In this document: positions 31,232 through 44,999 of the stretch, one piece after another
How positions within the stretch are numbered: position 1 is the first letter of the stretch
How the letters are laid out: each line of letters starts with the position of its first letter
Source: Rhodothermales bacterium
Lineage (GTDB): Bacteria; Bacteroidota; Rhodothermia; Rhodothermales; Bin80
Direction: 5' to 3'
Assembly: GCA_958296045.1 (NCBI GenBank)
Contig: CATQHT010000003.1
Location: forward strand, 197,246-261,245
Length of the DNA: 64,000 nt
Made by a program: the position numbers and the translations under genes
Notes under the pieces: generated by a model
Seen by the model: the letters and a program-made list of their open reading frames with translations, nothing else
Told to the model about the DNA's origin: nothing
Databases searched by the model: none

Positions 31232-32011
31232 TCACGGCTGTCTGGCTTCAGTTACGCTTGTCTTCTCTGGAAGGTTCTGCCATTGTGGCAGACGCTGTCT
31301 CATGGACTCTCCCTTCAGCGCGATGTGGTGTGCATTGTGAATGAGGTGATCCAGGATGGCATCTGCGAGTGTTGGGTCTTCCATGCCTTCGTGCCACACA
31401 CTCACAGGCATCTGGCTGGTAACGACGATGGATCCTTTCTGATACCGATCATCGATAAGCTCAAGCAGGTCCCGCTGGTGCAGCGCACTGATTCGTGATA
31501 ACCCCCAGTCATCGAGAACCAGTAGGTGGAAGCGCGTCAACTGCTTCAGCAGTTTCAGGAAGCGTCCGTCCCCGTGCGCGAGTTGCAGATCTTCCAGAAG
31601 ATGATGCAGTCGGTGGTAGCGTACGGTGAACCCCTCCATGCAGGCTTTATGCGCCAGCGCGCACGCCACGAAGCTCTTGCCGACACCGGTGGGTCCGGTA
31701 ATGATCACATTGTGATGTTTGCCCACCCAGTCGCAGGTGGAAAGCGAGGCCATCAGGCGCCGATCCAGATTGCGACCGCGACGATAGTCCAGATCGGCCA
31801 TGGAGGCCTCCTGGCGTAACCGGGCGCGGCGTAGGCGCGACCGCAGGCGCTTGTTGTATCGCACGATCTCCTCGTGGTCAACCAATAGGCCCAGGCGGTC
31901 CATGAACGGGAGCTGTTCCATTTCCGGTTGGGTAATCTGATCACGCAGCGCGCGCGCCATGCCATGCAGACGCATCTGCTCGAGCTTGTCAAGGGTAGGG
32001 TGTAGGAGCAT
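31232..32011 (-). CDS. istB: IS21 helper ATPase IstB
   Basis: IstB is the AAA+ helper that selects targets for the IstA transposase. The 259-residue protein contains Walker A GPTGVGKSFVACALAHKAC and Walker B-type LLVLDDWGLS. It overlaps the end of istA by one base, pointing to coupled translation. Confidence 0.93.
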   Translation of the reverse strand: MLLHPTLDKLEQMRLHGMARALRDQITQPEMEQLPFMDRLGLLVDHEEIVRYNKRLRSRLRRARLRQEASMADLDYRRGRNLDRRLMASLSTCDWVGKHHNVIITGPTGVGKSFVACALAHKACMEGFTVRYHRLHHLLEDLQLAHGDGRFLKLLKQLTRFHLLVLDDWGLSRISALHQRDLLELIDDRYQKGSIVVTSQMPVSVWHEGMEDPTLADAILDHLIHNAHHIALKGESMRQRLPQWQNLPEKTSVTEARQP

Positions 32012-33573
32012 CAGTCCTTCGAGGTTTGGTGAGGAGAATCCGATTTGATGTCGTAATAGCTTGGGCTCCGGATGTTGTCATGGTCTATGGGAGGCGGAGA
32101 CACCGAGTCCAGCGGATGCTTGTCGAGTCCATTCTTCAGGATGGACGCGATGCTCCTGTACGAGCGGGTGCCGATAGCGATTGCCCGCGTACACGCGTTT
32201 TCCATGCGGCTCTTACCGTAGATGCGAGCCAAGCGGAGCAGGCCCATGAGCGTGCGGTAGCGAATCAACGGGTGCCGTTCAGCATCGATGATCTGCTGCA
32301 CGACCTTGTGTGTGTCCGGCCCGATACGTTCTGCCTCGGTTACGAAGCGGCTCGTATCCTTCAGTTGGCGCTGGGAGTCCGGCATGTGTTCATCCTTGGT
32401 GGTGACCCCTTTCTGGTGGCTACGCGGGTGCGTCGCCACCCGTTTGTCGTCAAAAAATACCTCCAGGGTGGTATCTGTAAGGCGAACCTGTACCGAACGA
32501 CCTACATATCGATAAGGAACGCTATAACGGTGCCAGCGCACCTCGATGTGCGCATCTCTGTGCACCTTGGCTTTGCGCCACTCCGCGTGCTCGTACGGCT
32601 CCGCCGGCAAGGGCTTCATCGCTGATCGCTCCCACGTGTCAATCCAGCTCTTACGACTGCCTTCCAGCTTCTGAAAAGGCCGCTCGTCAAGCTCCTTCAG
32701 ATGGACACGAATGTGCCGGTTCACGTGCGCTAGACCGATGAAACGCTTATCGCTTAACGGAGCCAGAATGCGCCTCTCTGCATGCAACACGGCTTGCTCG
32801 ACCTTACCCTTGTCCCTGGGTTTCCCGGGACGCGTAGGCACAACCACGGTCTTGTAGTGCATCGCAAGGTCCTGATACGACGGATTGATCTCTGGATCGT
32901 ACCGGTGGGACTTGCGCACGCCACTCTTCAAATTGTCACAGACCACATAGGAAGGCACCGCCCCGAAATACTCGAACATGCGACGATGCGAGCCCAGCCA
33001 GTCCCCAAGACGCTGCGTCCACGTGGCCTCAACGTAGAGATAATTGGAGAATCCCAGCACGCCAACAAAGATCTCCACCCGGCGCCGCTTACGCGTAAGC
33101 TGGTCTATCGCCTCCAGGCGCATGCCTGCATAGTCCACGAATGCCGTATGACCCGCAGGATGATCCATCGGAACCGTCACCTGGCCGAATTCCTTCTTCC
33201 AGGCAGAGTAAAGAGCGCAGAACTTGCTGTAGCCGTAACCATCGCTGTGGTCCCGCCTGTACCGCTCCCACATCAGGTGTCGCGTGAACCCCTTGAGCTG
33301 TATCTTACGATGCACCTCGGACCAGTCCGGTAACGGACGCGTCTCTCTGGCACTCTCCGGCGGACCATAAAGCAAAGCCTTCAACGTGGCCTCCGTCATA
33401 CCCTCGGGCAAAGGCCAACGCACACCCGCTGCCTTAGCACGACGCAAATAACCAAGTACCGTGCTGTGCGATATTCCCAGCGCACGACCGATACCACGTA
33501 CGCTCAAATCAGACTCCGCAAACAACCGCAGAACGTCCCACAAGACACGCATCGCAACCCTCTTTTTTGGCAT
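32011..33573 (-). CDS. istA: IS21 transposase IstA
   Basis: IstA is a DDE transposase/integrase. The ATG at 33573 (MPKKRVAMRVLWDVLRLFAE) gives 520 residues. An N-terminal helix-turn-helix (LSVRGIGRALGISHSTVLGY) precedes the rve core with Asp in AFVDYAGMRLEAID, Asp in YVVCDNLKSGV and Glu in RDKGKVEQAVLHAERRIL. The full catalytic triad is present, so the IS may still be active. Confidence 0.93.
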   Translation of the reverse strand: MPKKRVAMRVLWDVLRLFAESDLSVRGIGRALGISHSTVLGYLRRAKAAGVRWPLPEGMTEATLKALLYGPPESARETRPLPDWSEVHRKIQLKGFTRHLMWERYRRDHSDGYGYSKFCALYSAWKKEFGQVTVPMDHPAGHTAFVDYAGMRLEAIDQLTRKRRRVEIFVGVLGFSNYLYVEATWTQRLGDWLGSHRRMFEYFGAVPSYVVCDNLKSGVRKSHRYDPEINPSYQDLAMHYKTVVVPTRPGKPRDKGKVEQAVLHAERRILAPLSDKRFIGLAHVNRHIRVHLKELDERPFQKLEGSRKSWIDTWERSAMKPLPAEPYEHAEWRKAKVHRDAHIEVRWHRYSVPYRYVGRSVQVRLTDTTLEVFFDDKRVATHPRSHQKGVTTKDEHMPDSQRQLKDTSRFVTEAERIGPDTHKVVQQIIDAERHPLIRYRTLMGLLRLARIYGKSRMENACTRAIAIGTRSYRSIASILKNGLDKHPLDSVSPPPIDHDNIRSPSYYDIKSDSPHQTSKD

Positions 33574-33736
33574 AAGTACCCCTTGCCTGGTAAGTGAAGA
33601 GGGTACGATACCACCTGCGCTCGACCTGCCGCCATCACCCGCGACAGGCAACAATAACCCATTACTAACTCTGCCAGACTGCCAATTTGGCAGTCCCATA
33701 TGCCGCCCTCCTACACCCCGCCGCCACCGGGCGGCA

Positions 33737-33783: not shown

Positions 33784-33798
33784 GGAGCGGAATACGCA

Positions 33799-34446
33799 GC
33801 CCCATGGGCTTCGGATAGCAGCGAGGCGACTTTTCTAGCACAGGAGCGTCGCTGGATCCTCTGGGATGGTGGTAACTTGCGCACGCGCACGCGCTTTGAC
33901 AGCCTTCTCACCCTTGCGAACGAAGCGCCGGAGGCCGCCCTGGCTGGGCTGCGGGCGCTTGCGCCCCGCGTCCGATCATCCCATGCTCGCCTGCAGACCG
34001 CACACGAAGCGGCGCTTCTTATGTACCGCACCGGGCGGTGGGAGGCGGCGGTCGCCGCCTTGCAGGTCCTATGGGACCAGGCGCAGGACCTGCCTGCAGA
34101 TTCGTCGCAGACAGCCCGCATCCGCGAAGACTACGGCACGATCACCTTCAACGTGGGGATGGCCCGTTGGCAGGATGGGGACCACCATGCCGCCCTGGCC
34201 TACTTGATGCAGAGCGAAGCCACGGGGTCCGTCCAGTCAGCGCGCGCGGCCCTAGAGGTGTCGCACCTACTGGTCAACGACATGGATGCGGCGCTTAGCG
34301 CCGCGCATCGCGCCGATGAGGCGTGGGACCGGCTGCCCCAGCCCGATCAGCAGCGGCTTTTGCGCCACATGGTAGAGCTGTACCGTCGCAGCGGCAACCG
34401 GGAGCGGGCCGCGACCTATGTGGCGAAATACCGCGCCATGCGGTAG
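33799..34446 (+). pseudogene. TPR-like helical-repeat protein, 5' end lost at the IS21 boundary
   Basis: From the IS21 edge the frame reads helical repeats (RFDSLLTLANEAPEAALAGL, ALLMYRTGRWEAAVAALQVL, RHMVELYRRSGNRERAATYV) typical of TPR-like proteins. No start codon or signal peptide belongs to the host part; the upstream residues come from the IS end. The missing 5' part was not recognised on the far side of the IS, so a deletion may have accompanied insertion. The protein might still be made from a start in the IS. Confidence 0.6.
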
Positions 34447-34605
34447 CCCTGCGTACTCGTCCTAGATTCTGGCCATAGCACAGCTGCAAGCGTGCCATAG
34501 CCCATAGCGGGAGTTATTGCACCTCCGTCAGGTGACGTGCCTGAACGCGGATACGGTGGTACACCGCACCTGATCGGAAAAGTCAGCAGGATACCTGGCG
34601 GGTTG

Positions 34606-35253
34606 CTACATGCGGGGCAGAGGCGCACCGGCCTCCACCCAGGCAGGAATCTCTCCCATCCCCACTTTGCGAGTGACGATGGCTTCGTCTGATATCCTGA
34701 ACCGGTCGGCACCTTCGCCAGGCACCACCATGGTGCGTTCCACCACCAGCAATTGGGGCGTGCTGGCTGGTCCGGGCAAGGTTTGCCAGATGTAGCGCAT
34801 CACACCTTCGTTCATCCAGCTCCGCCCCGTCATAATCTCGTCAAATGTGCCGAATGTGGCCAGATGGTTCACACCATTCTCGACAATCCAGTCTTTCGAG
34901 ATACCGACGGTGATGAATGGCCTTCCTGCTTCCAGAGCCTTATCTCGAAGCGCCCGCTTCGCGGTTGCCACCATTGCCGGGAGTGCTGGATTGGTAGAAA
35001 ACGCGCACTGAGACGACCCGATGTAAATCAAGACCAGCTCTTTCCCAGCGAGCGGCTCATAGGTAGGTTGATACTCGTCGCCTGTTGCAACATCCAGATC
35101 ACCAGCCACAACATCCTCGGAGGCAGCCGCTACCTCCAGAGACGACGACATGCCCGGAATGTTGATCCATCCAAAAAACGTCAGTGCAAAGGTCACGACA
35201 AACAGCACAATCCCTCCGATCACAGCCGCCCAGTGCCTTCTTATAAATCTCAT
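34606..35253 (-). CDS. Membrane-anchored thioredoxin-fold protein
   Basis: The 215-residue product has an N-terminal membrane anchor (WAAVIGGIVLFVVTFALTFF) and a thioredoxin-like segment, KELVLIYIGSSQCAFSTNPALP. Here the active-site position reads CAFS, a CxxS and not CxxC motif, so dithiol oxidoreductase activity is doubtful; single-thiol or binding roles are possible. It lies 15 nt after the propeller lipoprotein gene on the same strand and is probably translated from the same mRNA. It matches no well-known family that I can name. Confidence 0.7.
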   Translation of the reverse strand: MRFIRRHWAAVIGGIVLFVVTFALTFFGWINIPGMSSSLEVAAASEDVVAGDLDVATGDEYQPTYEPLAGKELVLIYIGSSQCAFSTNPALPAMVATAKRALRDKALEAGRPFITVGISKDWIVENGVNHLATFGTFDEIMTGRSWMNEGVMRYIWQTLPGPASTPQLLVVERTMVVPGEGADRFRISDEAIVTRKVGMGEIPAWVEAGAPLPRM

Positions 35254-35268
35254 CGTTACCCCCGTGAA

Positions 35269-36420
35269 TTAGATATCCGTGGAAGACAACTCGTAGACGA
35301 CGATACGCGGGTAAGGCCAGTTTATCGCTGCATACGCCCGCTCGCCGGAAACCGAAAAGACCAACGGCAACTCCGTACCTGCGTAGACGCCTTCGCCGGT
35401 GGCCGAGTCGATGACATATGTATGGATCTCCGCATAGTCTTGGTTTTCTTGGATGCTTTCCGGCGTTCGACGCCGCAGCTGCGCCACTATGAATTTCGTG
35501 CCAGCAACCGGAATGGTGTGGTGAAACACATCGGATACACCGCGCAGTCCGCTATAGGTTATCGTTCGCGTTTCAGTATCCTCGGTGATGCCCAGTGGCG
35601 TAAAGTCTTCGAGGACCGTCACCCATCGCTCTGCGCCTTCTATGGTGTATCCGCGCAGCACCGGCAAGTTTTTTAGCTGAATCACAACCGTACTCGTCTC
35701 ACTGTTGCACGAAACGGCCCCGGTCGACAAGTCTTGTCGGGCCATCTCGTTTTCTGCATGGTAGCCTTCGCCCAGTGATTGCCGGTAGGTGCCACCCATA
35801 TCGAAGGCGTGTACAATAGGCTCGTGCTCCGCCCAGATGCCATGAACAAACAGATGGGACGCCATCGTGCAAAGATCCTGGGGACCAAATGGAAGGACCA
35901 TAGTGGTGTCGTACGTGCCACTATCCGCTTCAAACGCCGTGATACGCCTAGCTCGATCCAGCACCAGCAGCCGCTCTGACGCATCAATGCCCAAGGCTGC
36001 AGGAGCCCGAAATTCGCCGGGACCTTCACCTGAGCGACCGATGGATCGGATATACTGGCCTTGCGCGTCGTACGTGCGGACCTCTGAAATGCGATCGTCC
36101 AGAACATAGACGGTACCGGCCTTATCGACCACAACGTCTGCGATACGCCCGAACATTTCGTAGCTCTCGCCTTCCTGGACGCCCAGGGTCAACACTTCAC
36201 GGACCTGCGCCAGTCGCTTGGCCATGTCAGTCAGCGAACCGTTCTGCGATGGGCTGTCGGTGGTGAGGACCTTGGTGTCTCCCCCAACCGGAATGTTGTC
36301 CTCCGTCGGATGGATGATCTGCCCCTGGGTACGCGGCCCATCATTTGCATCAGGCGCGGCACAGCCGACCATCAGCGCGCATACGATAGCCAAGGCCGTA
36401 GTGTGTTTCAGTGTTCTCAT
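35269..36420 (-). CDS. Six-bladed beta-propeller lipoprotein
   Basis: The 383-residue product has a lipoprotein signal (MRTLKHTTALAIVCALMVGC, lipid Cys at 20). NHL/6-bladed propeller blades follow: IADVVVDKAGTVYVLDDRIS, VRTYDAQGQYIRSIGRSGEG and ALGIDASERLLVLDRARRIT. Proteins of this type in Bacteroidota are surface or periplasmic and often sit beside small exported peptides and thioredoxin-like proteins, as here. Ligand unknown. Confidence 0.8.
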   Translation of the reverse strand: MRTLKHTTALAIVCALMVGCAAPDANDGPRTQGQIIHPTEDNIPVGGDTKVLTTDSPSQNGSLTDMAKRLAQVREVLTLGVQEGESYEMFGRIADVVVDKAGTVYVLDDRISEVRTYDAQGQYIRSIGRSGEGPGEFRAPAALGIDASERLLVLDRARRITAFEADSGTYDTTMVLPFGPQDLCTMASHLFVHGIWAEHEPIVHAFDMGGTYRQSLGEGYHAENEMARQDLSTGAVSCNSETSTVVIQLKNLPVLRGYTIEGAERWVTVLEDFTPLGITEDTETRTITYSGLRGVSDVFHHTIPVAGTKFIVAQLRRRTPESIQENQDYAEIHTYVIDSATGEGVYAGTELPLVFSVSGERAYAAINWPYPRIVVYELSSTDI

Positions 36421-36450
36421 CTCGGTCTCGCCAGTTGAATGGACATCTTG

Positions 36451-36843
36451 TCACATCGTGTCAAACTCTTTCGCCGAAGTGACCCTCCAGAGGCTTCGAT
36501 TCCAACTCCAGAACCTCTCCAGGTCGAGGGCCACTTGCAACCCAGCTATTCTCAAGGCGCCAACCCCGCCCTGGTCGAACCGCCCTAACAGATGCTGCGG
36601 GTACGGAGCGCACCTTGAATACAGCTCGCCTTGCGGAAGCGCCCATGTGGGCAGTTCTGCAGCATCCTCCGAGCGCATCGGGCAACATTCGTTCAGCACC
36701 GGCATCCTGCCCTCGCCAAGCGCATCGCCCACGCCTGCCAGAAGCGCAGATCCCCAAGTCAAGCCAACAACGGTGCACAAGCACCACCACACGGTTGGCC
36801 TCTGCGGCGAGCATCCCCCACAGCCTGCACTATTCCACGTCAT
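36451..36843 (-). CDS. Possible 130-residue ORF upstream of the propeller gene
   Basis: The frame contains a hydrophobic segment (TVWWCLCTVVGLTWGSALLA) and ends 30 nt before the propeller start. It may be real and part of the same transcript. Codon quality is unremarkable, an overlapping frame exists in the same stretch, and no family resemblance is seen. Listed only as a candidate. Confidence 0.25.
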   Translation of the reverse strand: MTWNSAGCGGCSPQRPTVWWCLCTVVGLTWGSALLAGVGDALGEGRMPVLNECCPMRSEDAAELPTWALPQGELYSRCAPYPQHLLGRFDQGGVGALRIAGLQVALDLERFWSWNRSLWRVTSAKEFDTM

Positions 36844-36974
36844 GCAGGCTGCGAAGCCGAGACTTCAACGGACCACCTCAGCTAGTCGCCGAAGAACCAC
36901 CTTTGCCCAGCCCATCTCTGGGCGTGCCACACGGACATCAAGTCAGTGTGCCGCCTCCATGGGAACACATTCGA

Positions 36975-37256
36975 TCAGCACGCCCCAGTCGCACATTCTC
37001 CGGTATGGAGTATTCGGCATTTCCGAGCCAGTTCTGTGTAGCCGCACACCAGATCGTTACAGGTGTTAAACTCGCAGGCTACAACCTCGGCGTGAGAACC
37101 GCCGATAAAGGTCTGTTTCAACAGAGCACCGGTCAGCGTGCCCAAGACAGCGAACAAGACGCCAAACACCACGGCGACGAGAAGGCGAGATGCTGATTTT
37201 CTCAGGGTAACGGAGGTTACGTTGCACAGGAGTGTACGGGCCAGTATACCCGACAC
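36975..37256 (-). CDS. Candidate exported cysteine-rich peptide
   Basis: With a GTG start at 37256 the frame gives 93 residues: a basic N-terminus, one strong hydrophobic helix (RLLVAVVFGVLFAVLGTLTG), a GG and small-residue stretch (FIGGSHAEVVA), and a 36-residue tail with six cysteines (ACEFNTCNDLVCGY ... KCRI ... GECATGAC). The layout of leader helix plus cysteine-rich tail resembles the NVEALA-type peptides found beside six-bladed propellers in Bacteroidota. It lies on the same strand upstream of the propeller and thioredoxin-like genes. The start codon is uncertain and no ribosome-binding site is obvious. Confidence 0.5.
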   Translation of the reverse strand: MSGILARTLLCNVTSVTLRKSASRLLVAVVFGVLFAVLGTLTGALLKQTFIGGSHAEVVACEFNTCNDLVCGYTELARKCRILHTGECATGAC

Positions 37257-37731: not shown

Positions 37732-39633
37732 CTACGGCACTACCAGCGCTTCCTCTAGCCGCAGGACCCATAAGCCCGAATTAAGGTCGGACGTGTAGAT
37801 ATGACCCTTAAAGAGCTGAGCACCCCACGCCATGGGCCACCCGGGCACCATCGTACGGTTATCCGTAGTCAGGAAATGCGCCAACTCACGACCCTGCAGG
37901 TAAAGGTCGCCACTAAGCTCACCTGAGATGTCCAAAACGCGCAGTCCGCCTTGGTAATATCCCACATACAGCCTATCCTGGTCTGCCCAGAGATTGTGAG
38001 CTCCAGCACCAGGTACCTCGTAACGGGCCACCTCTTGCGGGTGATCTATATCGGTCATATCCAAGACATGCACATACCCTGTGGCCTCTATCGGGCTGTC
38101 CGCATCAAACCCCGGCGGCCAGATTTCGTCACCGACAAAAAGGTAGCGGCCATGCCGCCACGCTACGTGCGTGTGGCCTTCGGGATATGAGAAGCTACTG
38201 ACCCAGGCGGGCTGCACCGGCGTGCCCCCATGCGTTCCAGCCCCGACATCTAGGGTTACAACACCATCATTCCAATAGGAGAGGTACGCATAGCCGTCTT
38301 GCACGATGACGTCGTGCAGCGTTTTCGTCCTCTTCTCTAGGCCCCAGCGGCCCACTTCGCGAGGATATGCAGGGTCTGCGATGTCAATGATATGAAGGTC
38401 GTTGGTACCATTATGGCAGGCATAGACGAGGTCTCCTTCAATCCAGACGTTGTGCACGCCGCCTGTGACGGTATCGGTGTACTCAGACAGGATCGAAGGC
38501 TGCGCCGGATTGTTCAAGTCAAGGATGACAATTCCGTTGCGACGGCTAGAAGCGCCTTCGCGCGTTACAACCGCCAGACGGTTGCTCCCGTGAATCTTGA
38601 CGTCATTGATGCGCCGCGCATCCAACTGGAGCGAATCTGTCAGCACAGGTGCTGCCGGATCCGTCACATCCCACACCGTCATCCAGTCATGTAAGTAGGT
38701 TCCGACATAGGCATAGTCACGGCCGTCGGTGCCCTCAAACACCCACATGTCTCCCGAATGGTGCGTATCCGCAGGGCCACGCCCCACCTTTTCTAGGCGT
38801 GCATTGTACCTCCTCGGCTCGGCCGCGACCACTATAGACTTGTGTACATCCTCTCCCATAGTCGCAGTGACCGTGTATGTACCTTCCTTTTGGGCCACGA
38901 AGACACCGTCGGATCCGTCTGAGACAATGGCTGCACCATCTGGAGATACCTGCCACCTGGCATAGATCCCATCGACCTGCGCACCGTCGCGGGCGACCCC
39001 GAATACTCGAAAGCGCACAACATCGCCATGCCGAATGTTCACACGGTTCTGAGCGATCTGGTAGCCGACTGCCGGGTTAGCTACGACTTCAACCGGAATG
39101 TCCGTCTGCCTGCCATCGGCGCGGGCAGTGATTACAGTCTGCCCTGGAGCGCGCCCCGATACCAAGCCCTGTGCATCAACGCGCGCGATGCGCCTGTTGG
39201 CAGAGCGAAAATCAAGCTCCAAATCATGGACCACGTCACCTAGCTCCGTTCGGGCTACGACTTTGACAGGCACGCGGAGGCCTTCGTAGACGGTAACAGA
39301 CGGCATTACAGGTCTGAGCTCATGAACCGGAAGCTGCACGATCTCCACTGTCGCATATGCGGGCCTGCCCCCGACCACGACCGCCACGCGCACTGTTCCG
39401 GGCGCATGGGCAGTAAGCAACCCTGAAGAGCTGATGGTCGCCACATGAGCCTCCCGGATGAACCAGCTCGAAGATAATCCCTCCAACTCGTGACCATCGG
39501 CTCCGATGGCGCGTGCCGTAAACTGCTGCGTCGCACCCACATTGAGAATCGCCGACGGCGGTTCGACAACCAGCGTGTCTGGCATAGCGGGGACCTGTTG
39601 CATCACCACGCAGAACAATAGCAACATCTTCAT
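37732..39633 (-). CDS. Secreted Ig-like / LVIVD-repeat propeller protein
   Basis: The ATG at 39633 (MKMLLLFCVVMQQVPAMPDT) gives a signal peptide and 633 residues. The N-terminal half has three Ig-like (BIG2-type) repeats (TLVVEPPSAILNVGATQQFT; SAILNV.../GLLTAHAPGTVRV; QNRVNIRHGDVVRFRVFG). The C-terminal half carries LVIVD-type propeller blades (VWDVTDPAAPVLTDSLQLDA, GIVILDLNNPAQPSILSEYT, DLHIIDIADPAYPREVGRWG, YVHVLDMTDIDHPQEVARYE). It is likely a surface or extracellular binding protein. It is divergent from the MATE gene across a 92-bp spacer that must hold both promoters. Confidence 0.85.
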   Translation of the reverse strand: MKMLLLFCVVMQQVPAMPDTLVVEPPSAILNVGATQQFTARAIGADGHELEGLSSSWFIREAHVATISSSGLLTAHAPGTVRVAVVVGGRPAYATVEIVQLPVHELRPVMPSVTVYEGLRVPVKVVARTELGDVVHDLELDFRSANRRIARVDAQGLVSGRAPGQTVITARADGRQTDIPVEVVANPAVGYQIAQNRVNIRHGDVVRFRVFGVARDGAQVDGIYARWQVSPDGAAIVSDGSDGVFVAQKEGTYTVTATMGEDVHKSIVVAAEPRRYNARLEKVGRGPADTHHSGDMWVFEGTDGRDYAYVGTYLHDWMTVWDVTDPAAPVLTDSLQLDARRINDVKIHGSNRLAVVTREGASSRRNGIVILDLNNPAQPSILSEYTDTVTGGVHNVWIEGDLVYACHNGTNDLHIIDIADPAYPREVGRWGLEKRTKTLHDVIVQDGYAYLSYWNDGVVTLDVGAGTHGGTPVQPAWVSSFSYPEGHTHVAWRHGRYLFVGDEIWPPGFDADSPIEATGYVHVLDMTDIDHPQEVARYEVPGAGAHNLWADQDRLYVGYYQGGLRVLDISGELSGDLYLQGRELAHFLTTDNRTMVPGWPMAWGAQLFKGHIYTSDLNSGLWVLRLEEALVVP

Positions 39634-39725
39634 AATTGCGCCGGGCAGATCGCGAAGCACGGCGTATACCCTAATTCTGAGGCGAAGGATCCGACGCCTT
39701 GCCAAAGTGCTCCATTACGCGTGCC

Positions 39726-41269: not shown

Positions 41270-41917
41270 ATGCCACAGGTCTTTTCGAGGAAAGTCAACG
41301 GTCTACCATTCCTGTCGCTAGTGGGGAGCCTGGTCGTTGGCGCAGTGTTCGTGTTTTTGATCTGGTACTATTTCTCTCCTGAGTACACGGATGTCGGCTA
41401 CGCTCCCGAGCAACCGGTGCAGTACAGCCATCGGCTCCATGTCGACCAGCTCGGAATGGACTGTCAATATTGCCACAGCTTCGTCACGGTGGCTGACATC
41501 GCCAATGTGCCCGCTACCGAAACGTGCATGAATTGCCATTCAGTGGTCGGACCGCAGTCGCTCGCGCTTGCGCCCGTAAGAGAGAGTTGGGCGTCCAACG
41601 CGTCCATTGCCTGGGTCAAGGTTCATCAGCTCCCCGACTACGCCAAATTCAGTCACGCCGTGCATACGAATCGCGGTGTAGGCTGCGAAACGTGCCACGG
41701 CCGTATCGATCAGATGGATGTCGTACGGCAGACCGAACCGCTCTCTATGGGATGGTGCCTGGAATGCCACCGCGAACCGGAACAGTACCTGCGACCCGAC
41801 GACCAGGTCACGACTATGGGGTACATTCAGAGCGACGACTTTGTAGAGCGCAACCTGGAGCGGATTCGCACGGAGGGCATCCACCCACCCACCAATTGCA
41901 GCGCATGCCACTATTAG
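41270..41917 (+). CDS. actA: Alternative complex III subunit ActA, pentahaem cytochrome c
   Basis: ActA carries electrons from the ACIII Fe-S subunit towards the oxidase at the periplasmic face. The 215-residue product has one N-terminal membrane anchor (LPFLSLVGSLVVGAVFVFLI) and five haem-binding CxxCH motifs at 65-69, 86-90, 139-143, 163-167 and 210-214. This is the number known for ActA of Rhodothermus. The actB ATG follows after one base. Confidence 0.95.
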   Translation: MPQVFSRKVNGLPFLSLVGSLVVGAVFVFLIWYYFSPEYTDVGYAPEQPVQYSHRLHVDQLGMDCQYCHSFVTVADIANVPATETCMNCHSVVGPQSLALAPVRESWASNASIAWVKVHQLPDYAKFSHAVHTNRGVGCETCHGRIDQMDVVRQTEPLSMGWCLECHREPEQYLRPDDQVTTMGYIQSDDFVERNLERIRTEGIHPPTNCSACHY

Positions 41918-41918
41918 C

Positions 41919-44900
41919 ATGATTGCCCTCCCCATCGTCGAGGCACCGGCCGGTCCTAAGGTGAAGGCGTGGCGCAGCCTGCCCCACCTGCATCAGGAAG
42001 ACGGCTTTGCCGAGTCCGTGCAGGGTGAATTCATTCCAGGCGCTAGCGACCGCCCAGGCAACGCGTCGCGGCGCAACTTTCTGCAGCTCCTGGGAGCATC
42101 GATGGCACTGGCAGGCCTGGCAGCCTGCCGGCGGCCTGCGGAAGAGGTGTGGCCCTTTGCCGATCGTCCAGAAGAGCTAATCCCGGGAGTGCCGCTCCAC
42201 TATGCGACCGCCATGCCCCTTCGCGGCAGTGTGCAGCCACTGCTGATCAAGAGTCATGACGGCCGCCCCACTAAGGCGGAACCCAACCCCAATCACCCAA
42301 CGCAAGCCGCAGGCACTAGCGTGTTTGCTCAGGCGTCAATCTTGAGCCTGTACGATCCAGATCGCTCGCGTACGCTGCGCCGCGCAGGTAGCACCGCACA
42401 GTGGGATGACTTCCTCGCGCTGTGCCAGCGCTTAGAACGCGGTGATCGACGCATTGTAGTGATGAGCGAAGAGACATCCTCGCCGACCGCCATCGCACAG
42501 CGCGCGCAGCTTATGCAGCGGTTTGCCAATGCATCGTGGGTTACCTATCGACCTGCAGGTCGTGATAACGAAGCCTTGGGGCTGCAGTCCACCTTTGGGC
42601 AGCGCCTGCGTCCGCTGTACCACTTTGACCAGGCCGACGTCATCGTCAGCCTTGATGCCGACTTTCTGGGGCCTACGAGCCGCTATGCAGGGTACGCAAT
42701 GCCAGCGTTTGCGCGCGGCCGGCGCCTTAGCACGCCCTCAGACGAAATGAGCAGGCTCTATGTGGCCGAGAGCACCTACACGGTCACAGGCGCCATCGCT
42801 GACCATCGTGCACCGTATGCGGCCGCAGATATCGGAGTCCTTGTCAATAGCCTGGCTGCAGAGCTTGGACTGATTGCTCCCGAGTTTGCCCAACCGAGCG
42901 ATTGGACAACTGCCATCGCGCGAGACCTCCAAGAAGCCGGCAGCCGAAGCCTAGTGCTGGCAGGAGAACACCAGCCCCTGGAAGTGCACGCGCTCAGTAT
43001 GGCGATCAACAGCGCGCTTGGCGCGATCGGCACTACCGTGACGCTAGTCGATCCACCAGAGCCGCAAGATGATACGGACCTAGCTTCGCTCACCAGCGAG
43101 ATGCAAGACGGCAACGTGGATGTGTTGCTAATGCTGGGCGTTAACCCGGTATACGATGCGCCGCCGGAGCTGGACTTTGCCAGCGCGCTCTCTCGTGTAG
43201 GAGACTCTGTCCATCTCGGCATGCATGTGGACGAGACGGCGCGCGTTGCCACATGGCATGTGCCGCAGGCGCATTACCTGGAGACTTGGGGCGATGGACG
43301 TGACCCCAGCGGCATCCTGTCGGTTACGCAACCCCTCATCGCGCCCCTGTATGCCGATGCTAAGAGCGCAATCGAAGTTCTTGGCGCGCTTGCATCTGGT
43401 GAAGATCAGTCTGGATACGCCCTAGTACGCACCACGTGGCAGCCGCTGCTTAACGCACCGTTTGAAGAAAGCTGGCGCAGAGTGCTACACGATGGCTTTC
43501 TGGCTGGCTCCGAGTTCAACGCTGCTGAGGCACCAACGCGGCAGCCAGCGCGCGCAGTACGTACCGAATCCAGCGCAACAGAGCTGGTGTTCCGGTTAGA
43601 TCCAACCGTCTTGGACGGTGGCTTTGCGAACAACGCATGGTGCCAGGAGCTCCCCGACCCAGTCACGAAGATCGTCTGGGACAACGTGGCAGTGATGAGC
43701 CCAGCCACCGCCCAAGAGCTAGGGGTGACAGCCCACTACAACAAGGGCCGCTACGACGTCGATGTTATCGCACTGACCGCTGGAACGCAGACAGTAGAAC
43801 TCCCGGTCTGGATCCTTCCCGGCCACGCGGATCGATCGATTGCCGTGAACCTAGGATACGGACGCAACCTGGAAAGTGACCGCCCGAGGCGCCGCACGCC
43901 CATCTGGGATACCGGAGACCTGACCGACATATACGGCCAAGGCGCCTTGGGTACCGACATAGGACGTAATGTGTCCGTACTTCGTGATGCGGCAGGAAGT
44001 GGTATCCGCACCGATGTGCAGGTGACGGTCACCGGGCGCCGGTACCGCATTGTCACCACGCAGGATCACGGCGTGCTCAACGTGAGCGCGCGGCCATTTG
44101 TGCGGATGGCCACTCTGGCCGATTATCGAGCTAACCCCGCGTTTGCGCTAGACTACGAAGCCCCCACTCCAGGCTCGGATGAGAAAACACGCTTCGAAGA
44201 CTACCCCACCCTCTGGGAAGACAACCACCCGGACCGGTCTGCGGCGATAAGAGATAGCGCCTACTTTCGGAACCAGTGGGGCATGGTCATTGACCTAAAT
44301 ACGTGCACGGGCTGCAACGCCTGCATCGTCGCATGCCAGGCCGAAAACAATGTGCAGGTCGTAGGTAAGACCGAGGTGGGCAACGGGCGCGAATTGCACT
44401 GGCTGCGCCTGGACCGGTACTTCATCACCGACGATGACGCGCCGCTTGATGCCAATCCGCAAATGGCCATGCAGCCCATGCCGTGCCAGCACTGCGAAAA
44501 CGCTCCATGTGAATCAGTCTGTCCGGTCTCCGCCACGGTGCATTCGCCCGATGGCACCAACCAGATGATCTATAACCGGTGCATCGGTACCCGGTACTGC
44601 GCGAATAACTGTCCATACAAGGTCCGCCGCTTCAACTTTTTCGCCTGGTCTAAGCACATCCCGGTCACCGTGCAGATGGCCCAGAACCCGAACGTATCGG
44701 TTCGGTCGCGGGGTGTAATGGAGAAGTGCTCCTTCTGCATCCAACGTGTCCGGGGTGCCCAGAAGCAGGCCCGGCTGGAAGCGCGGCCGCTAGCACGGGA
44801 CGAGGTTGTCACCGCATGCCAAAGCGCATGCGCCGCAGGCGCCATCACCTTCGGGGACCTCAACGACAATGAGAGCAGCGTCGCCGTGCAGCGCAGAAAT

Positions 44901-44999
44901 CCACGCAGCTACACCATGCTGGCTGAGCTGAACGTGCGACCCCGCGTCTCGTATCTGGCACGGGTGCGCAACCCCAACCCTGACCTCGAGCCCGCTTAG
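41919..44999 (+). CDS. actB: Alternative complex III subunit ActB, Fe-S/molybdopterin-like
   Basis: ActB is the large periplasmic subunit combining a molybdopterin-oxidoreductase-like domain (no Mo cofactor in characterised ACIII) with ferredoxin-like domains. The 1026 residues contain a Tat-like segment ([20 protein letters not shown]) near 50-70, the long catalytic-like domain, and cysteine clusters from about 795: [39 protein letters not shown] and [10 protein letters not shown] followed by [10 protein letters not shown]. They supply three 4Fe-4S and one 3Fe-4S-type site in known complexes. It starts one base after actA. Confidence 0.95.

What the first reader, a model, noticed from the sequence alone, without database searches (positions are those of the whole stretch)
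34606..37256. Cysteine-rich exported peptide with propeller lipoprotein and CxxS thioredoxin-fold protein
A possible small protein with one leader helix and a six-cysteine tail lies upstream of a six-bladed propeller lipoprotein and a membrane-anchored thioredoxin-like protein with CAFS at the active site. The arrangement parallels NVEALA peptides beside propellers in Bacteroidota, whose function is unknown. Such a set could export, fold or capture a cysteine-rich peptide.
Basis: partly seen in the sequence, partly recalled or inferred. Interest (0 to 1): 0.68.

Follow-up and report, generated by a model that had tools for sequence, protein, structure and literature searches.

The report
Secreted six-cysteine mini-protein maturation cassette
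The window holds one copy of a widespread, undescribed three-gene cassette that makes a small secreted protein with six cysteines, together with a thioredoxin-like partner and a propeller lipoprotein that probably fold or escort it; nothing is yet known about what the small proteins do.

Summary
A propeller lipoprotein (35269-36420, minus strand), a membrane-anchored CAFS thioredoxin-fold protein (34606-35253) and an upstream peptide with a leader helix and six cysteines (36975-37256) are all present. The peptide belongs to a conserved family: a profile built without it finds it as the best of about 1,100 window ORFs (E 7e-5; next 0.057). Related peptides (C-E-x-D-x-C...C...C...C-x(3-4)-C) lie directly upstream of most propeller/thioredoxin pairs in Rhodothermales and Gemmatimonadota relatives. 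Eight strong hits found by peptide profile alone, outside the training set, all lie beside a propeller.

Neither the peptide nor the thioredoxin family has a Pfam or NCBIfam model. Cassette propellers carry an invariant cysteine pair (61 of 62, against 0 of 11 others). Most thioredoxins lack the resolving cysteine (33 of 43). A signal peptidase I gene adjoins three cassettes. True NVEALA loci have the same layout and related propellers, but their peptides do not match.

Best reading: a cassette that exports, cleaves and disulfide-matures a secreted mini-protein, probably for interaction between cells. The final function is unproven. The window peptide lacks an obvious ATG start, and many relatives are decaying.

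The parts
36975..37256 (-). Six-cysteine exported peptide. Family-aligned part is 36975-37205 (LRKSASRLL...ECATGAC). Predicted mature part about 36978-37088 (EVVACEFNTCNDLVCGYTELARKCRILHTGECATGAC) after an SHA cleavage site
   Evidence: leave-one-out profile hit E 7e-5; alignment A3; AxA-like site statistics; start codon uncertain (GTG 37256 or CTG 37205)
35269..36420 (-). Six-bladed propeller lipoprotein with cassette-specific cysteine pair C184/C238
   Evidence: PF17170 E 2.3e-12; cysteine pair in 61 of 62 cassette propellers, 0 of 11 others (counted)
34606..35253 (-). Membrane-anchored thioredoxin-fold protein, active site C83-A-F-S, no resolving cysteine
   Evidence: AlphaFold2 model pLDDT 87 and fold matches to tryparedoxin, ResA, CcmG and DsbE; family alignments A2/A5
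36421..36974 (-). 554-base gap between peptide and propeller, longer than in most cassettes (about 20-300 bases); no recognised gene
31232..33699 (-). IS21-like transposase pair flanking the cassette (context, not part of it)
   Evidence: same element at 95-96% identity beside other cassettes of this genome

Best explanation
The three genes form a dedicated cassette for making a secreted, disulfide-rich mini-protein. The peptide precursor is inserted through the Sec pathway by its leader helix and cut by signal peptidase I at an A-x-A type site 2-10 residues before the first cysteine, giving a mature protein of about 35-70 residues with six cysteines. The inner-membrane thioredoxin-fold protein faces the periplasm. 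With only one active cysteine it forms mixed disulfides with the peptide and so sorts or isomerises its disulfides. The propeller lipoprotein binds the peptide or exchanges disulfides with it through its invariant cysteine pair, and escorts it at the outer membrane. The released mini-protein most likely acts on other cells (antagonism or signalling). Shown: a conserved family, synteny, thioredoxin fold, the cysteine pair and loss of the resolving cysteine. Inferred: cleavage, disulfide chemistry, binding and the final role.
For: Peptide family aligned with six conserved cysteines and otherwise about 21% column identity. Held-out peptide hits with E below 1e-5 all sit beside a propeller. Order peptide(s)-propeller-Trx conserved across Rhodothermales and Gemmatimonadota. 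Up to three tandem peptides in one cassette (L179). An [AVTSIL]xA site lies within 13 residues before the first cysteine in 45 of 50 peptides, against 34.0 +/- 2.8 in shuffles. Signal peptidase I genes (PF10502, E about 1e-28 to 1e-30) directly follow the thioredoxin gene in L179 and L180, and a homologue does in L171. Thioredoxin fold. First cysteine in 43 of 43; fourth residue S 27, A 6, C 10. Propeller cysteine pair specific to cassettes. More distant pairs show dS far above dN in the mature peptide, so the frame is coding; in one close pair (L102/L135) the mature peptide changes about four times faster (dN) than its partners.
Against: No expression, proteomic or activity data exist. The window peptide lacks the family's ATG, so this copy may be silent. 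Relatives often carry broken genes: 7 of about 36 cassette Trx hits have internal stops, against 1 of about 149 ordinary redoxin hits in the same genomes, so the cassette is dispensable in many hosts. No dedicated exporter across the outer membrane was found. Signal peptidase I is adjacent in only three cassettes. The propeller cysteine pair may be a plain structural disulfide. The peptide tail model is low confidence (pLDDT around 50).
Confidence: 0.58

Rival explanations
1. Bacteriocin-like antagonism (a narrower form of the best explanation): the mini-proteins are toxins, the thioredoxin protein installs their disulfides (as PedC is thought to do for pediocin), and the propeller lipoprotein gives immunity or acts as escort.
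For: Variable loops on a fixed cysteine frame; many diverging and decaying copies per genome with insertion sequences nearby; fast nonsynonymous change in one close pair; precedent of a thiol-disulfide oxidoreductase raising pediocin potency (PMC4919988).
Against: No toxicity data. The fulvocin C-related model touches one of 28 members at E 0.11 only. No peptide ABC exporter and no defence-library match. In one near-identical pair (L130/L131) the mature part looks conserved.
Confidence: 0.35
2. Peptide signalling: the mature mini-proteins are pheromones or kin-recognition ligands and the propeller is the surface receptor.
For: Propellers commonly bind ligands (general knowledge); several peptides per cassette; each cassette keeps its own partner set.
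Against: No regulator, histidine kinase or sigma/anti-sigma pair is a conserved neighbour.
Confidence: 0.25
3. Metal-handling set: the C-x4-C pairs with acidic residues bind copper or zinc and the Trx-like protein is a SCO-like metallochaperone.
For: Foldseek lists SCO1 structures among the weak matches; acidic residues sit next to the cysteines.
Against: The SCO CxxxC metal motif is absent; TlpA/ResA/DsbE and tryparedoxin folds score as well or better; no copper oxidase or efflux genes recur nearby.
Confidence: 0.1
4. The window copy is a pseudogene of an otherwise real cassette.
For: CTG replaces the usual ATG; no clear ribosome-binding site; unusually long gap before the propeller; several sibling copies in the genome are broken.
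Against: The leader and six-cysteine tail are open and in frame; the propeller and Trx are intact; a GTG start is available at 37256.
Confidence: 0.35

Closest known systems
NVEALA peptides (Pfam PF14055) beside DUF5128 propellers in Bacteroidales
   Same: Lys/Arg start, leader helix, spacer, cysteine-containing tail; followed by a propeller lipoprotein homologous by profile; a thioredoxin-like protein and signal peptidase I in the same run of genes (L231, L233).
   Different: No PF14055 match for any of 28 members; no N-V-E-A-L-A motif; fixed six-cysteine frame instead of a loose 3-4 cysteine tail; Trx profiles unrelated and mostly CxxS/A rather than CxxC; propeller carries an extra cysteine pair.
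Dedicated thiol-disulfide oxidoreductases of bacteriocin clusters (PedC of pediocin)
   Same: Thioredoxin-fold protein encoded next to a small exported cysteine peptide; PedC raises pediocin potency and is thought to form its disulfides (PMC4919988).
   Different: Here the active site mostly lacks the resolving cysteine, a propeller lipoprotein accompanies it, and no ABC exporter is found; antibacterial activity untested.
TlpA/ResA/CcmG/DsbE membrane-anchored periplasmic thioredoxins
   Same: N-terminal membrane helix, thioredoxin fold (VIA Z 8-9.4), cis-Pro motif.
   Different: No Pfam or NCBIfam hit; CxxS/CxxA site; linked to the peptide cassette.
Fulvocin C-related bacteriocin family (NCBIfam NF033852)
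   Same: Small exported cysteine-rich protein.
   Different: Only one member reaches E 0.11; not a supported relation.

Membership tests
NVEALA (PF14055) | Match to the PF14055 profile | tested here: not met
   0 matches among 28 family members at E up to 0.5
NVEALA (PF14055) | N-[VI]-E-A-L-A motif after the leader | tested here: not met
   absent in window peptide and alignment A3; present in A10
NVEALA (PF14055) | Neighbouring six-bladed propeller lipoprotein | tested here: met
   PF17170 at 35269-36420; NVEALA loci show the same; profiles homologous
Six-bladed propeller DUF5128 (PF17170) | Score over the curated cut-off | tested here: met
   47.2 bits against 22.9
Thioredoxin-fold superfamily | Thioredoxin fold with a cis-Pro type loop and active-site cysteine | tested here: met
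   AF2 model pLDDT 87, VIA Z up to 9.4 over 111-125 residues; conserved C83 and TPQ motif
Canonical CxxC thiol-disulfide oxidoreductase | Two active-site cysteines | tested here: not met
   window site is C-A-F-S; 33 of 43 relatives lack the second cysteine
PedC/TlpA/ResA subfamilies | Sequence-level family match | tested here: inconclusive
   no Pfam, NCBIfam or PDB sequence hit; only the fold agrees
Bacteriocin | Antibacterial activity and self-immunity | not testable with these tools
   needs bench assay
Fulvocin C-related (NF033852) | Match over cut-off | tested here: not met
   one of 28 members at E 0.11; window member none

The most novel reading that the evidence does not exclude
A previously undescribed class of bacterial secreted disulfide-rich mini-proteins with its own redox relay: a one-cysteine thioredoxin and a propeller lipoprotein with a dedicated cysteine pair together set the disulfides of a variable six-cysteine peptide. 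The same layout (cysteine-rich peptide, propeller, thiol oxidoreductase, sometimes signal peptidase I) has been assembled with several unrelated peptide families across Rhodothermota, Gemmatimonadota and Bacteroidales.
Probability: 0.3. Interest if true: 0.85.

Novelty: new variant of a known kind. Interest (0 to 1): 0.64.

Why it matters
Secreted disulfide-rich mini-proteins are familiar in animals and fungi and in a few bacteriocins, but an abundant multi-copy family of them with dedicated partners is not described for these bacteria in the libraries searched. The propeller cysteine pair and the one-cysteine thioredoxins give a directly testable redox mechanism. The shared layout makes the unexplained NVEALA peptides of Bacteroidales part of a wider question: what do propeller lipoproteins do for small exported cysteine peptides?

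Tried and rejected
Single-sequence search with the window peptide gave only weak hits; profile search was needed. Pfam, NCBIfam and PADLOC have no model for the peptide or the Trx protein. PDB sequence search of both families found nothing meaningful. Peptide structure prediction failed to give a confident tail. Weak peptide hits in other Bacteroidota genomes (G239, G167, G107, G228; E 0.002-0.015) had no propeller beside them and are treated as chance. A search for other recurrent neighbours found only shadow ORFs, transposases, shared chromosomal context and the signal peptidases. No plasmid or phage copy of the Trx protein. No paper mentions NVEALA or DUF5128 in the held library. The fulvocin hit was judged chance. 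A second peptide relic in the 554-base gap was not found.

Full report
Observation. The propeller (35269-36420) passes the Pfam cut-off for DUF5128 and begins with a lipoprotein signal. The 215-residue protein (34606-35253) matches no family model, but its predicted structure is confident (pLDDT 87). It shows one N-terminal helix and a thioredoxin fold closest to tryparedoxin, ResA, CcmG and DsbE, with C83-A-F-S at the active site. The peptide ORF (36975-37256) has a hydrophobic leader followed by six cysteines.

Is the peptide more than chance? Yes. The same genome has a second set in the same order: peptide MKRY...CEFNWC, propeller and Trx (CVAS), in L037. Around Trx homologues of related genomes, small ORFs with a leader helix and the pattern C-E-x-D-x-C...C...C...C-x(3-4)-C lie directly upstream of the propeller in most cases. 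A profile built without the window peptide still ranks the window ORF first among all six-frame ORFs of the window: E 7e-5, next 0.057. Without either own-genome peptide in the profile it is 5.5e-4 against 0.41.

A peptide-only profile search of 395 genomes of the phylum gave eight strong hits outside the training set: G008:C59, G010:C49, G042:C82, G012:C102, G142:C57, G190:C1, G009:C55 and G172:C96. All eight are next to a propeller. Weaker hits without neighbours were discarded.

Distribution. Cassettes occur in many Rhodothermales genomes, in other families of the same class and in Gemmatimonadota. The cultured Fodinibius salsisoli and two other Balneolia loci have the Trx and propeller pair. 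In F. salsisoli (L186) and L196 a cysteine tail follows the propeller. L198 has one in the usual place before it. In all three the leader is missing or out of frame. Near-identical Gemmatimonadota contigs also appear in bins labelled Boseongicola, Gammaproteobacteria and Bryobacterales, probably by misbinning. The Trx protein has no match among plasmid or phage records.

Anatomy. (1) Peptide: leader with Lys/Arg start; an A-x-A type signal peptidase I site within 13 residues before the first cysteine in 45 of 50 members, against 34.0 +/- 2.8 in shuffles; mature part about 35-70 residues; the cysteines are conserved while mean column identity is about 21%. (2) Trx: the first active-site cysteine is present in 43 of 43; the fourth residue is Ser in 27, Ala in 6 and Cys in 10. 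(3) Propeller: an invariant cysteine pair (window C184 and C238, 54 residues apart, about one blade). It is present in 61 of 62 propellers that sit with this Trx or peptide family, and in 0 of 11 other propellers in the same loci (counted; a few rows are near-identical copies). (4) In L179 and L180 a signal peptidase I gene (PF10502) directly follows Trx, and in L171 a homologue does.

Comparison with NVEALA. The Pfam NVEALA family passes its cut-off in only 2 of 395 phylum genomes. Their loci (L231-L234) show NVEALA peptide, propeller lipoprotein, a CxxC thioredoxin and/or signal peptidase I. The propeller profiles are homologous (hhalign 95.7%, E 9e-9), while the Trx profiles are not detectably related, and none of our peptides matches PF14055. 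So the system is laid out like the NVEALA loci, but the peptide is not a member of that family. The E-A-L-A motif itself ends in an A-x-A type site; that it is a signal peptidase I site is my inference.

Evolution. Several copies per genome, tandem peptides, neighbouring insertion sequences and frequent breakage suggest fast birth and death. Seven of about 36 cassette Trx hits have internal stops, against 1 of about 149 listed ordinary redoxin hits in the same genomes. The two searches used different query types, so this comparison is indicative only. In the close pair L102/L135 the mature peptide has dN 0.178 and dS 0.139, against 0.048/0.147 for the propeller and 0.040/0.159 for Trx. More distant pairs have dS near or at saturation with dN about 0.35, which shows coding constraint.

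The window genome also has loci with unrelated cysteine-rich peptides beside propellers and thiol oxidoreductases: L241 (two peptides, Trx CRKC), L236 (Trx-like CLDS) and L040 (DsbA type, broken).

Mechanism. I take the cassette to be a maturation line for a secreted disulfide-rich mini-protein: Sec insertion, signal peptidase I cleavage, disulfide sorting by a one-cysteine thioredoxin, and binding or disulfide exchange with the propeller pair at the outer membrane. The last step, action on other cells, is the least certain. Conserved family, synteny, fold, cysteine pair and loss of the resolving cysteine are shown; all else is inferred. PedC of pediocin is a known case of a thiol oxidoreductase that helps a cysteine bacteriocin (PMC4919988).

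Caveats. The window copy has CTG where the family has ATG, and otherwise needs a GTG start at 37256; it may be silent. The peptide tail could not be modelled. No expression data are available.

Noticed in passing
L241:3274-5644, L236:3388-5737, L040:4214-6338 (window genome): Further loci with unrelated cysteine-rich leader peptides beside a propeller and a thiol oxidoreductase (CRKC Trx-like, CLDS Trx-like, broken DsbA-like). The theme is wider than one peptide family.
   Followed up: partly
L038:3903-4199, L196:3390-3673, L198:6370-6650: Leader and cysteine tail lie in different reading frames in several loci. Recurrent decay is most likely; programmed frameshifting was not excluded.
   Followed up: partly
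L107, L110, L038, L039, L041, L204/L106: Peptides with eight cysteines tend to go with CxxC thioredoxins, six-cysteine ones with CxxS/CxxA. Only a few independent cases.
   Followed up: partly
L105:4143-5387: The one cassette propeller lacking C184 sits with a Trx that has CEAC (two cysteines), as if one replaced the other.
   Followed up: no
window 31232-33699: IS21-like element, 95-96% identical copies next to other cassettes of this genome (L138, L040). Bases 33789-34747, including the Trx C-terminus, are duplicated in L040 at 87%.
   Followed up: partly
L187-L194: Near-identical Gemmatimonadota-type contigs appear in MAGs labelled Boseongicola, Gammaproteobacteria and Bryobacterales, probably misbinned.
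   Followed up: no
window 37732-39705: Protein with Big_2 Ig-like domains and LVIVD repeats just upstream of the cassette; no link to it found.
   Followed up: no
window 41270-44999: Multihaem cytochrome and molybdopterin/iron-sulfur protein resembling the start of an alternative complex III operon (from reading the sequence only).
   Followed up: no
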